This document shows positions 12,223 to 21,581 of a stretch of 64,000 bases of DNA, piece after piece (position 1 is the stretch's first letter; the number at the start of each line of letters is the position of its first letter). The position numbers and the translations under genes were made by a program. Source of the stretch: Thermoanaerobaculia bacterium (GTDB lineage: Bacteria; Acidobacteriota; Thermoanaerobaculia; UBA5066); assembly GCA_022071945.1 (NCBI GenBank), contig JAJVIN010000020.1:62001-126000 (forward strand). The letters run 5' to 3'. The notes beneath the pieces were generated by a model, which saw only the letters and a list, made by a program, of their open reading frames with translations, was not told the origin of the DNA and searched no databases.

Positions 12223-13764
12223 TCAGCCCGCGCGCTGTCTCCCGCGCCGTCCGGCGAAGACGGTCTCCACCTCGGCCGGAGGCGAGGTGAACCTGACGAG
12301 GAACCGCCCCTCCCGTCGAGACAGGACCTTGGCGTAGATGTCCCCGGGTATCTCGCCGCCGTCCTCCGCCGCCACCCGCAGCCTCAGGTTCGTCATTTCA
12401 TCGATGCCCTCACTGGAGTCGACCTCGGCTCGCTTCGAAGCCAGGCTCACGATGCGGCCCGCGAATGTCGAGCCCTCCACCTGTTTTCCGCTCAGTCGCG
12501 CCACGGACACTCCGATCGGCACGGTGAGAGGAATGAGCGGGTCCTCTTCATCCGGAACGCGCTCCCCCCCGATCCCCACGAGCGTCCAGGCGGTAATCGG
12601 ATCCTTGAATCCCTTCGCCTGCACCTCGATGCGGTCTCCCACCTCCGCGGCCGCTCCGGCCGCCAGCCGGGCGGATTCGGAGATGAGGACCTGCCCTCCG
12701 ACAGTCATGGACTCGATCCGGGCGGTCAGGTTGACGTGGCTCCCCACGATGCCGTACTTGGCCCGTGTCATCGAGCCGATGTTGCCAACCACGACCTCTC
12801 CGGTGTGGACCGCGATCCCCATCTCCACTGGCGGGAGGTCTTGTTCCACGGCGCGCCGGTTCACATCGAGAATGGCCCGCTGCATCGCCACGGCACACGC
12901 GATTCCCCTCTGGGCATCATCGGGCGCCGAGATGGGCGCCCCGAAGATGGCCAGGACGGCGTCTCCGATGAACTCGTCGATGGTCCCGCGATACGAGGTG
13001 ATGACCTCGGCCATGGCGCCCAGGTAGTTATTGAGGAGCCTGACGACCGCCTCGGCGTCGAGGCGTTCGCACGTCGATGTGAAGCCTCTGAGGTCGGACA
13101 TGAGGATCGTCACGACCCGGCTCTCGCCACCCAGACGAAAGCCGTCGGGGGATTCCAACAGGCTCGCCACGACGTCATCGGAGAGGTACCGACCGAAGGT
13201 CGCCCGAATGAACCTGTTCCGTTTGGACAACTCCGCGGCCTGCCGGGCCAGCTCGTCTCGCTGCCGCTCGACCTCGGCGTTGCGCTGCCGAAGCTGTTCC
13301 TGGCTCTCCACGAGCGCCTCGTACGCGAGCTTTCTCTGCCTTGCATTGCGAAACGCCCCCGAGTGATAGCGGACCCGCGCGATGAGTTCCACTGGGTTCG
13401 GGACCTTCACGAGGTAGTCGTGGGCTCCCACCCGGAACGCCTCGGCCTTCACGACGGGGTCCTCCCGCGTGGAGAGGACGATCAATGGGATATCCAACGT
13501 GCGGGGGTCGGCACGAAACCTCCGGGCGAGCTCGAGCCCATCCACGCCCGGCATCACGAGGTCCTGCAGGATCACTGTCGGCAGGATCGACGCGGCCATT
13601 TCAATCGCCCCGGAAGGATCCTGACAGTAGTGGAGAGTGATGTAGGGCTCGGGCCTGAAGATCTGCCGGAGGGCCTCCGCGATGATCGGCTGGTCATCGA
13701 CCAGGAGCACGGTCACCGGCTGCCGCCTCACGGGCGGAGGAACGAGCTCCTCGAAAGGACTCAC
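12223..13764 (-). CDS. Response regulator (REC) fused to class III adenylate/guanylate cyclase and C-terminal PilZ-like domain; output protein of Wsp-type system
   Basis: The track ORF (to 14574) runs into cheB out of frame. GTG at 13764 overlaps the cheB stop by 4 bp (GTGA). TVLLVDDQPIIAE...VILQDLVMPGVDGLELARRF (REC); VVTILMSDLRGFTSTCERL...GTIDEFIGDAVLAIFGAP...RAKYGIVGSHVNLTARIESM (cyclase); C-terminal GRIVSLASKRAEVDSSEG...VRFTSPPAEVETVF. Confidence 0.88.
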   Translation of the reverse strand: MSPFEELVPPPVRRQPVTVLLVDDQPIIAEALRQIFRPEPYITLHYCQDPSGAIEMAASILPTVILQDLVMPGVDGLELARRFRADPRTLDIPLIVLSTREDPVVKAEAFRVGAHDYLVKVPNPVELIARVRYHSGAFRNARQRKLAYEALVESQEQLRQRNAEVERQRDELARQAAELSKRNRFIRATFGRYLSDDVVASLLESPDGFRLGGESRVVTILMSDLRGFTSTCERLDAEAVVRLLNNYLGAMAEVITSYRGTIDEFIGDAVLAIFGAPISAPDDAQRGIACAVAMQRAILDVNRRAVEQDLPPVEMGIAVHTGEVVVGNIGSMTRAKYGIVGSHVNLTARIESMTVGGQVLISESARLAAGAAAEVGDRIEVQAKGFKDPITAWTLVGIGGERVPDEEDPLIPLTVPIGVSVARLSGKQVEGSTFAGRIVSLASKRAEVDSSEGIDEMTNLRLRVAAEDGGEIPGDIYAKVLSRREGRFLVRFTSPPAEVETVFAGRRGRQRAG

Positions 13765-14792
13765 GCCCCGCGTCTCCGGATCTGCCGGGCCGCGAACCCC
13801 GCGATGGTTGCCGGTATCGCGTCCAGGGGCAGGATCAGCTCGGCGGCATTGAGTTCCGCGGCGGCCCTCGGCATCCCGTAGACGACGCTCGTGCGGGCAT
13901 CCTGGGCCACAGTCGTCCAGCCTGCCCGCCGCAGGCGGAGCAGGCCCTCCGCCCCGTCTCGGCCCATCCCGGTGAGCAGGATGCCCAGGCCCGGAGACGG
14001 ACTGGCGGCGAGGCTCCCGAACAGGACATCGATCGATGGCCGGTGAGGGACTCCGGCTGGCTCCGCGGAGTACCCGAGGCTCCGATCCGGGCGCAGAACC
14101 AGATGGTCCGCCGTCGCCGCGAGGTACCCCTGCGCGGTCCGGGGAACGTCGCCGGAGCGGGCGGCGGAGACGCGAAACCCGGTGCGTTCGGTCAGCCAGC
14201 TCGCCAGGCCCTCGGCGAAGCCGTCGTCGATGTGCTGAACGATCAGGACGGCCGCGGCGAGATCGCGTGGAACCCTTGCAAGGATCGAAGCCAGGGCCGC
14301 GGGACCGCCGGCCGAGGAGCCGATCGCCACGATCGGGGCCACCCCGGCCGGCTCGCGGAGCTCGATCGGCCCGCTTCCTCCGCTGGCCGGAGCGCGCTTT
14401 GAAAGGAGCGGCTCGAGGCGCACCAGCCGTTCGAGAAACGGCGCCAGGCCCGTCAACTCTCCGTCCGGGCTCATGGCAGGGGCCGTCACGGCATCGAGCG
14501 CCCCTTGCCCCAGGGCTTCGTAGACCACTTCCACGCTCCCGGCAACGCGATCGCGGGCAAGCAGGACGGCACACGGCCTCTCCGCCATGACCTGCCGCGT
14601 CAGCTCGGCGGCGCCCGGCTGAGAGAGAGCGGGGTCAAGGAGCAAGAGGTCGGGCGTGTCCCGCAGCGTCGATTCGAGCGCCTGGGCGCCCTCCCTCGCG
14701 GTCCAGATGACCTCGTGGCCGGCTCCACCGGTCACGGCACGCCGCAGGGCCTCGACGGTCAGGCGGCTCGGGCTCGCGATGGCAATCCTCAT
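13761..14792 (-). CDS. cheB: Chemotaxis response regulator protein-glutamate methylesterase CheB (WspF-like)
   Basis: N-terminal REC-like region and C-terminal methylesterase (PIVAIGSSAGGPAALASIL...VLIVQHIDDGF...LLTGMGRDGAEGLLRLRRAG). Confidence 0.92.
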   Translation of the reverse strand: MRIAIASPSRLTVEALRRAVTGGAGHEVIWTAREGAQALESTLRDTPDLLLLDPALSQPGAAELTRQVMAERPCAVLLARDRVAGSVEVVYEALGQGALDAVTAPAMSPDGELTGLAPFLERLVRLEPLLSKRAPASGGSGPIELREPAGVAPIVAIGSSAGGPAALASILARVPRDLAAAVLIVQHIDDGFAEGLASWLTERTGFRVSAARSGDVPRTAQGYLAATADHLVLRPDRSLGYSAEPAGVPHRPSIDVLFGSLAASPSPGLGILLTGMGRDGAEGLLRLRRAGWTTVAQDARTSVVYGMPRAAAELNAAELILPLDAIPATIAGFAARQIRRRGA

Positions 14793-19925: not shown

Positions 19926-21581
19926 TCAGCCCGGAACCTTGAAGTGCGAGATCTCTTCCTTCAGGCTCGTCACCGCGTCTCTCAGATGGGCGGTCGCCGC
20001 GTTGAACTCCTTCAGGGAAGTCGCGCTCTGCCGGGCGCCATCCATCAGCTGCGCCATCGCCTCGCTGATCTGACGGGCGCCCTGGGACTGGCTGCGCATG
20101 CCGTGGTTGACCGAGTCGAATCGCTCCGACAGCGTCTGCACTTGCGTGATGATCTGACCGAGCTGGCTGGCGACCTGCTGGCTCGACGAGACCCCGCGCT
20201 TCACGTCCGCCGCGAACCGGTCCATCTCCATGACACCCGCCGAGACGGCGCTTTGCATGTGCCTCACCATCTGCTCGATGTCGAGGGTGGCCACGGCGGT
20301 CTGGTCCGCGAGCCGCCGGATCTCGCGGGCGAGCACGAGAAAGCCAAGTCCCTGCTCGCCGGCCTTCTCGGCCTCGATGGCGGCGTTCACCGACAGGAGG
20401 TTGGTCTGGTCGGCCACCTTGGTGATGGTCGTGACGACGCCGCTGATGTCGGAGGTCTTCTCGCGAATGGCCGAGAGGCGCGCCGAGATCGCGGAGGTCG
20501 CCTGCTCGAGCTGGTGCATCGTCTCGTCCATGCCGCGAAGCCCCGACCGGCCTCCCTCGGCCAGCTGGGCGGTCTGCGCCGCGACGGCGTTCACGCCCTC
20601 CATCGTGGCGAGAAGCTCGGCGCTCGTCGCCGAGATCTCCTTGACGGCGGCCGCGATCTCGTTGGTGGACGAACCAAAGCCGCTGATGGCGGATTCCTGC
20701 TGGCGGCTCGTCGCCGTGAACTCCGTGGCCGTCGACATCAGCTCGATCGACGCCTGCTTGACACGCGTCACGAGCGAGCTGAGATCGGCCGTCATCCGCC
20801 GGATCGCGAAGAGGAGCCGCGCGGACTCGTCCGTGCCCGAGGTTTCCGGCACCGACGCGGTGAGATCCCCCGAGGCCACCTGGGCCGCCACCTCCGCGGC
20901 CTTGCCGATCCGCCGGCTGAGCTCGTCCGCCATGCGGCCCGTGACCCAGGCGATGAGAAGCACCACTGCCACGACGAGGGCTCCGAGCCACAGCAAATCG
21001 CGAGAACTCGATCGCACGGAATCCTCGGCCGCCTTTTCCAGCTGCGCGTTCTGGGCGGTCGCCATCCTCACGACCTCGTCGACCGCCCGCCGGTGAGCCT
21101 CGTATTTCTGCTTCAGGGTCGCGAGAATCGCCCGGACTCTCGCCTCGTCCTTCGCCTTCAGCGCGGGCAGGAGCTCCTTGTCTCGCGTGTCGAGATACTC
21201 GAGGGCGGGCCGGTAGGCCGTGACGTTCATGGCATCCGCCAGAACGCCGGGAGATAGGGTCCGCCTCCAGTACTCGTGGCGGCTCTCGAATTCCAGACGC
21301 AGGGCGTTCCCGCGCTCGATCAGGGCGGCCTGCGCGGCCGGATCCGCCTCCTCGACGAGCTGGAGCGTGACGAGATGCGTCTCGATGATGTACTGGGGGG
21401 GCGGCAGGACGTCGGCAATGATGTCCTTGCCCTGAATGATGTCGCGATACACGGGGCCGTTGACGCGAACGGTTTCGAGCGTCCGCATCGAAACGAAGGC
21501 GAAGGCCGCGAAGACGGCGACGAAGACGCCAACCAGCAGCAGCAGCTTCCCCGCCAGACCGAGGTTACGGAAGAACGACAT
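19926..21581 (-). CDS. Methyl-accepting chemotaxis protein (WspA-like)
   Basis: Start set at MSFFRNLGLAGKLLLLVGVFVAVF (TM1); periplasmic ...PPPQYIIETHLV...; signalling tip AAIEAEKAGEQGLGFLVLAREIRRLADQTAVATLDIEQMVRHMQSAVSAGVMEMDRF. Confidence 0.9.
   Translation of the reverse strand: MSFFRNLGLAGKLLLLVGVFVAVFAAFAFVSMRTLETVRVNGPVYRDIIQGKDIIADVLPPPQYIIETHLVTLQLVEEADPAAQAALIERGNALRLEFESRHEYWRRTLSPGVLADAMNVTAYRPALEYLDTRDKELLPALKAKDEARVRAILATLKQKYEAHRRAVDEVVRMATAQNAQLEKAAEDSVRSSSRDLLWLGALVVAVVLLIAWVTGRMADELSRRIGKAAEVAAQVASGDLTASVPETSGTDESARLLFAIRRMTADLSSLVTRVKQASIELMSTATEFTATSRQQESAISGFGSSTNEIAAAVKEISATSAELLATMEGVNAVAAQTAQLAEGGRSGLRGMDETMHQLEQATSAISARLSAIREKTSDISGVVTTITKVADQTNLLSVNAAIEAEKAGEQGLGFLVLAREIRRLADQTAVATLDIEQMVRHMQSAVSAGVMEMDRFAADVKRGVSSSQQVASQLGQIITQVQTLSERFDSVNHGMRSQSQGARQISEAMAQLMDGARQSATSLKEFNAATAHLRDAVTSLKEEISHFKVPG

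What the first reader, a model, noticed from the sequence alone, without database searches (positions are those of the whole stretch)
12223..21581. Wsp-type chemosensory operon whose diguanylate-cyclase output (WspR) is replaced by a REC / class III nucleotide cyclase / PilZ-like protein
Seen: seven co-directional genes, six of them joined by ATGA/GTGA-type 4-bp overlaps, in the order MCP, CheW, CheR-TPR, CheW with CPEL/HCRNC motif, CheA-REC, CheB, output regulator. Established: this is the gene order and architecture of Pseudomonas wspABCDEFR, where the last gene is a REC-GGDEF diguanylate cyclase. Here the last gene carries a class III cyclase (VTILMSDLRGFT, DEFIGDAVLAIFGAP, YGIVGSHVNLTARIE) and no GGDEF. 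Inference: a surface/envelope-sensing Wsp-like array that outputs cAMP or cGMP instead of c-di-GMP, i.e. an output-domain swap at the same operon position.
Basis: partly seen in the sequence, partly recalled or inferred. Interest (0 to 1): 0.82.

Follow-up and report, generated by a model that had tools for sequence, protein, structure and literature searches.

The report
Wsp chemosensory operon predicted making cGMP
An acidobacterium carries a sensory gene cluster of the kind that elsewhere switches on biofilm formation by making cyclic-di-GMP, but its last gene carries an enzyme that by sequence should make cyclic GMP instead, suggesting that this sensory machine works with exchangeable outputs.

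Summary
Window 12223-21581 (minus strand) holds MCP, CheW, CheR-TPR, CheW, CheA-REC, CheB and a REC-cyclase, with five 4-bp overlaps. CheA falls inside a 100%-supported clade with WspE of wspR- and wspH-type systems, apart from other CheAs. The output protein's REC and signalling helix are WspR-type: 62% identical to an Azoarcus WspR, against 35% for the best paralog in its own genome. No second Wsp-type receiver was found there. The fused enzyme is closest to Synechocystis Cya2, a guanylate cyclase, and has Cya2's guanine-selecting Glu-Gly pair and all metal and transition-state residues, so cGMP is the likely product. The C-terminal domain has the PilZ fold but lacks the c-di-GMP-binding motif. 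'Surface sensing' is not supported: the receptor's sensor domain differs from WspA's. The arrangement is not unique: 34 fetched loci carry it, mostly Desulfobacterota, and cyclase tests indicate at least two separate joinings to the Wsp receiver. The same slot elsewhere holds GGDEF, histidine-kinase or PP2C outputs. A 2012 survey already listed 'mononucleotidyl cyclase' among outputs of CheR-TPR clusters. Verdict: real, a new variant of a known kind; mechanism inferred.

The parts
19926..21581 (-). MCP (WspA position): two TM helices, ~170-aa periplasmic domain of unassigned family, HAMP, MCP signalling domain; GTG alternative start at 21617
19412..19906 (-). CheW (WspB position)
18111..19415 (-). 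CheR methyltransferase with weak C-terminal TPR-like repeats (WspC position)
17452..18114 (-). CheW with N-terminal CPEL...HCRNC cysteine motif shared with WspD-position proteins (WspD position)
14789..17455 (-). CheA-REC hybrid kinase (WspE position); phosphoacceptor H189; extra N-terminal Hpt-like copy with Q38 in place of His
13761..14792 (-). CheB methylesterase (WspF position); REC below Pfam cut-off
12223..13764 (-). Output response regulator, 513 aa: WspR-type REC (D23, D24, D68, S98, K120) + helical stalk 124-190 + FGRY transducer element 190-193 + Cya2-type class III cyclase 210-399 (D224, E264, D268, G338, N345, R349) + PilZ-fold domain ~411-512

Best explanation
A Wsp-clade chemosensory array whose output is cyclic GMP. 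Steps: the MCP array controls CheA; CheA phosphorylates D68 of the output regulator's WspR-type receiver; receiver pairing is transmitted through the long coiled-coil stalk and the FGRY transducer element to a Cya2-type homodimeric cyclase; the cyclase converts GTP to cGMP; CheR and CheB adapt the receptor. Shown here: gene order, clade of CheA and receiver, domain boundaries, fold, intact catalytic residues. Inferred: the phosphotransfer, activation by dimerisation, GTP as preferred substrate. The PilZ-fold tail lacks the canonical c-di-GMP motif and is probably a structural or protein-contact module. Downstream receptors are unknown; the genome encodes 23 cyclic-nucleotide-binding domain matches, two of them in cNMP-GGDEF proteins with the domain pair of Xanthomonas XC_0249, so relay into c-di-GMP is possible but speculative.
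For: CheA core: 40 Wsp-type rows (26 REC-cyclase operons, 7 GGDEF, 1 HK, 5 PP2C, 1 unknown) form one side of a 100/100 branch against 10 other CheAs; moving the window CheA to the others is rejected, p-AU 0.015. Output residues 17-171 match WspR 3BRE/3I5A at 162-166 bits, against 63 for PleD. The receiver tree puts it in a 63-row 100/99 clade with WspR/WspH/PP2C receivers, not with receivers of most non-che REC-cyclases. Best own-genome paralogue: 35%, 90 bits. Cyclase: Cya2 2W01 at 218 bits, AC CyaB at 120; fold matches 2W01 at 1.3-1.8 A rmsd. E and G at the two base-selecting positions, both metal Asp, Asn and Arg are invariant in 35 che-linked and 48 other relatives. Cya2 has an E-G pair (PMC4215837), and E488K converts Cya2 to an adenylate cyclase (PMC5995499). 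Operon conserved across phyla.
Against: No biochemistry. Cya2's tyrosine next to the catalytic Arg, reported to boost GC activity, is Ala348 here, so GTP selectivity may be weaker. CheB's receiver is degenerate, so adaptation feedback may differ. Model confidence falls below 50 at residues 182-200, at the stalk-cyclase joint. Phosphorylation of D68 by this CheA is assumed from operon and homology.
Confidence: 0.68

Rival explanations
1. Same array and swapped output, but the enzyme is an adenylate cyclase or a mixed AC/GC in vivo, feeding CRP-type regulators.
For: Cya2 Tyr is Ala here, and Cya2 itself is reported to have equal affinity for ATP and GTP. The own genome has 23 cNMP-binding domain matches, many possibly cAMP receptors. 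JGI labels relatives 'adenylate cyclase' (automatic).
Against: Glu replaces the adenine-selecting Lys in all 83 aligned relatives. The reverse Glu-to-Lys change alone turns Cya2 into an AC (PMC5995499).
Confidence: 0.2
2. The cyclase is the co-transcribed neighbour but the real target of this CheA is another response regulator; the REC-cyclase is driven elsewhere or is silent.
For: 39 own-genome receiver matches exist. In Desulfobacterota a second Wsp-type response regulator (PP2C) sits next to the REC-cyclase.
Against: 4-bp overlap with cheB, receiver of the Wsp class, no other Wsp-class receiver in the genome, and linkage conserved in 34 loci.
Confidence: 0.08
3. A catalytically inactive cyclase domain serving as a GTP- or protein-binding scaffold.
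For: Only the absence of assay data; the PilZ-fold tail already looks like a degenerate ligand domain.
Against: All catalytic and base-selecting residues invariant in 83 sequences.
Confidence: 0.04

Closest known systems
Wsp system (wspABCDEFR) of Pseudomonas and Betaproteobacteria
   Same: Gene order, CheR-TPR, CheA-REC, cysteine-motif CheW, CheA clade, WspR-type receiver plus stalk
   Different: Output enzyme is a class III cyclase, not GGDEF; sensor domain not recognisably 4HB; CheA carries an extra Hpt-like copy; extra PilZ-fold tail on the output protein
Burkholderia WspH (WspHRR) system
   Same: Wsp core with the GGDEF replaced behind a Wsp-type receiver (PMC8552884)
   Different: Histidine kinase output, gene at the 5' end; here cyclase output, gene at the 3' end
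Synechocystis Cya2 guanylate cyclase (2W01)
   Same: ~54% identical catalytic domain, E-G pair of base-selecting residues, FGRY transducer element
   Different: Cya2 is a CHASE2 membrane protein; here a soluble receiver drives the cyclase; Cya2's activity-enhancing Tyr is Ala
ACF/CheR-TPR chemosensory clusters (PMC3447774)
   Same: Multidomain response regulators with varied outputs, 'mononucleotidyl cyclase' among them
   Different: That survey did not, in its text, assign nucleotide, Wsp clade membership or the retained WspR receiver
Xanthomonas XC_0250/XC_0249 cGMP pathway (PMC3770947)
   Same: Bacterial class III cyclase making cGMP; two cNMP-GGDEF proteins exist in the window's genome
   Different: XC_0250 is a TPR-cyclase with no chemosensory array; the cNMP-GGDEF genes are not linked to the operon here

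Membership tests
Wsp chemosensory system | Gene order MCP-CheW-CheR-CheW-CheA/REC-CheB-response regulator | tested here: met
   compared with Azoarcus and Mesorhizobium operons
Wsp chemosensory system | CheA in the WspE clade | tested here: met
   100/100 branch; exclusion p-AU 0.015
Wsp chemosensory system | Receiver and stalk of the output regulator of WspR type | tested here: met
Wsp chemosensory system | CheR with C-terminal TPR | tested here: inconclusive
   No Pfam TPR hit; weak NCBIfam TPR hit 345-419
Wsp chemosensory system | WspA-type 4HB sensor domain | tested here: not met
   4HB_MCP_1 E 0.073, under cut-off, against 6.7e-21 and 1.4e-14 in two WspAs; profile comparison probability 0.7%
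wspR subtype | GGDEF diguanylate cyclase output | tested here: not met
   Response_reg and Guanylate_cyc only
Wsp chemosensory system | Response to surface contact | not testable with these tools
   needs phenotype
Cya2-type guanylate cyclase | E-G base-selecting pair, two metal Asp, Asn-Arg transition-state pair | tested here: met
Cya2-type guanylate cyclase | Tyr beside the catalytic Arg that enhances GC activity in Cya2 | tested here: not met
   Ala348; alignment, role in PMC4215837
Cya2-type guanylate cyclase | GTP to cGMP activity | not testable with these tools
   assay needed
PilZ c-di-GMP receptor | PilZ fold | tested here: met
   pLDDT 92.6 model; the best Foldseek hits are PilZ proteins or PilZ-containing complexes, TM about 0.5-0.68; 8 of 43 relatives hit PF07238
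PilZ c-di-GMP receptor | RxxxR and (D/N)xSxxG motif | tested here: not met
   Neither present in the window protein

The most novel reading that the evidence does not exclude
Wsp is a multi-phylum class of chemosensory array with a plug-in output slot, and Cya2-type guanylate cyclases were fitted to the Wsp receiver at least twice, giving array-controlled bacterial cGMP signalling (in some Desulfobacterota beside a PP2C phosphatase output), possibly relayed to c-di-GMP through cNMP-GGDEF enzymes.
Probability: 0.5. Interest if true: 0.72.

Novelty: new variant of a known kind. Interest (0 to 1): 0.57.

Why it matters
cGMP signalling is experimentally known in very few bacteria, and no chemosensory array driving it turned up in the literature searched here. 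The widest Wsp survey found (794 systems, PMC8552884) recognises only wspR and wspH outputs and places the origin of the system in Betaproteobacteria. The loci here extend the Wsp CheA clade to Acidobacteriota and Desulfobacterota with guanylate-cyclase and phosphatase outputs. The same receiver and stalk driving GGDEF, class III cyclase, kinase and phosphatase modules is a natural set of domain swaps that makes testable how one receiver switches unrelated dimeric enzymes.

Tried and rejected
Reading it as a one-off fusion or assembly artefact: rejected, since a closely related operon end exists in a same-family genome and orthologous ones in 33 further loci. Single origin of the REC-cyclase in Wsp operons: rejected for the cyclase domain (p-AU 5.6e-56, 95 log units; the group was named after seeing a tree); CheA does not reject one clade (p 0.16), so operon backbone history stays open. 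Surface sensing by homology of the sensor domain: no match. c-di-GMP binding by the tail: motif absent. Nucleotide specificity of the two cNMP-GGDEF proteins: their phosphate-binding cassettes read GELACL...RSA, which I judged uninformative from general knowledge; XC_0249's sequence was not at hand.

Full report
OBSERVATION. Genes two to seven are joined by five 4-bp overlaps; the MCP gene precedes by 19 bp. The output gene starts at GTG 13764 and ends at 12223 (513 aa). The window lies in a 6.17-Mb, 96% complete genome of 69 contigs. Its closest relatives of the same family match records titled Acidobacteria and Thermoanaerobaculia, so the host is an acidobacterium by kinship.

WSP CLADE. CheA cores were compared from REC-cyclase operons, from plasmid- or chromid-borne wsp operons (Cupriavidus, Burkholderia, Azoarcus, Novosphingobium, Mesorhizobium, Variovorax and others), from Acidobacteriota genomes and from other CheAs. 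They split along a long 100/100 branch: all Wsp-type CheAs, the window's included, on one side and ten others on the other. Forcing the window CheA to the others is rejected at p 0.015. CheW2 carries the CPxL...HCxxC motif also found in 26 of 37 CheW2 relatives, including most WspD-position proteins.

OUTPUT PROTEIN. Residues 17-171 match the WspR crystal structures at 162-166 bits, with the identity running through the receiver and into the helical stalk up to about the point where WspR's GGDEF begins. The receiver groups with receivers of Wsp operons, whatever their output, in a 63-row 100/99 clade, and is 62% identical to that of Azoarcus WspR (few columns, so inner order is unsure). The best other receiver in the same genome is 35% identical, so no separate wspR is evident. 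After the stalk comes the FGRY transducer element and a class III cyclase whose nearest solved relative is Cya2. The two base-selecting positions hold Glu264 and Gly338, the E-G pair of Cya2 (PMC4215837). The Glu-to-Lys change alone converts Cya2 into an adenylate cyclase (PMC5995499). These residues, both metal Asp, Asn345 and Arg349 are invariant in 83 aligned relatives (residue numbers in that output are three too high). A more ordinary cyclase of the same genome has the K-T pair instead (L002). One caution: Cya2's GC-enhancing Tyr is Ala348 here. The C-terminal domain is a PilZ fold, without RxxxR or (D/N)xSxxG.

DISTRIBUTION AND HISTORY. Of the 80 best loci in GTDB genomes, 34 carry the REC-cyclase beside Wsp-type genes: mostly Desulfobacterota, also the UASB14 bacterium, Acidobacteria and Burkholderiales, the last with the REC-cyclase first in the cluster. 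The same slot elsewhere holds REC-GGDEF, REC-HK (Burkholderia) and REC-PP2C phosphatase (five Acidobacteriota loci). Several Desulfobacterota have REC-cyclase followed by REC-PP2C, and UASB14 has REC-GAF-GGDEF plus REC-cyclase. In 396 sampled Acidobacteriota genomes eight have Wsp-type CheA: one GC (the window), one GGDEF, five PP2C, one off-contig. The cyclase domains of the window's group lie next to acidobacterial cyclases of the own genome and relatives, away from the Desulfobacterota Wsp cyclases. One clade is rejected by 95 log units, which points to at least two joinings of a Cya2-type cyclase to the Wsp receiver. The CheA data do not reject one clade.

FUNCTION. The best-supported mechanism is CheA-dependent phosphorylation of D68 and stalk-mediated activation of a GTP-selective cyclase. 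What it senses is unknown. The receptor has two TM helices and a periplasmic domain matched only by the Burkholderiales GC systems (60-63%). It does not match the 4HB domain of WspAs by Pfam or profile comparison. Possible receivers of the message are the 23 cNMP-binding domain matches, two of them in cNMP-GGDEF proteins with the architecture of the cGMP-activated XC_0249 (PMC3770947); that link is speculation.

NOVELTY. 'Mononucleotidyl cyclase' was tabulated among outputs of CheR-TPR clusters in 2012 (PMC3447774; its Table S2 could not be read here). The main Wsp survey recognises only R and H systems (PMC8552884). No paper on a Wsp array with a guanylate cyclase turned up in the library, which lacks most subscription journals.

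Noticed in passing
window 1225-11379, minus strand: A ~3370-aa predicted secreted protein (signal-peptide-like start) with leucine-rich repeats, fibronectin III and many BACON domains lies 0.84 kb downstream of the operon on the same strand; a candidate giant surface protein.
   Followed up: partly
window 14789-17455, CheA residues 36-108: An extra N-terminal Hpt-like copy, 37% identical to the active Hpt, with Gln38 in place of the phosphoacceptor His: a pseudo-Hpt.
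   Followed up: partly
window 13761-14792, CheB residues 1-110: The CheB receiver lacks the usual acidic pair (AIASPSRL) and scores below the Pfam cut-off, so feedback phosphorylation of CheB may be lost.
   Followed up: no
L153, L154, L155, L156, L157; L044, L046, L049, L050, L060: Wsp-type receivers fused to PP2C/SpoIIE-like phosphatase domains (assigned by eye from sequence) in the Wsp output slot or next to the REC-cyclase; a further output type not in the wspR/wspH scheme.
   Followed up: partly
L163 1952-2881 and L164 2077-2979 (own genome): Two cNMP-binding-GGDEF proteins (309 and 300 aa), the domain pair of Xanthomonas XC_0249.
   Followed up: partly
L004/L028 and L005 (own genome): Two further cyclases with the E-G guanine-type pair; L028's frame also has a REC. 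The genome may have several cGMP sources.
   Followed up: no
window 21724-26397: Neighbours upstream: WYL/WCX regulator and L-serine dehydratase on plus, multihaem cytochrome c552-like protein on minus; no evident link to the operon.
   Followed up: no
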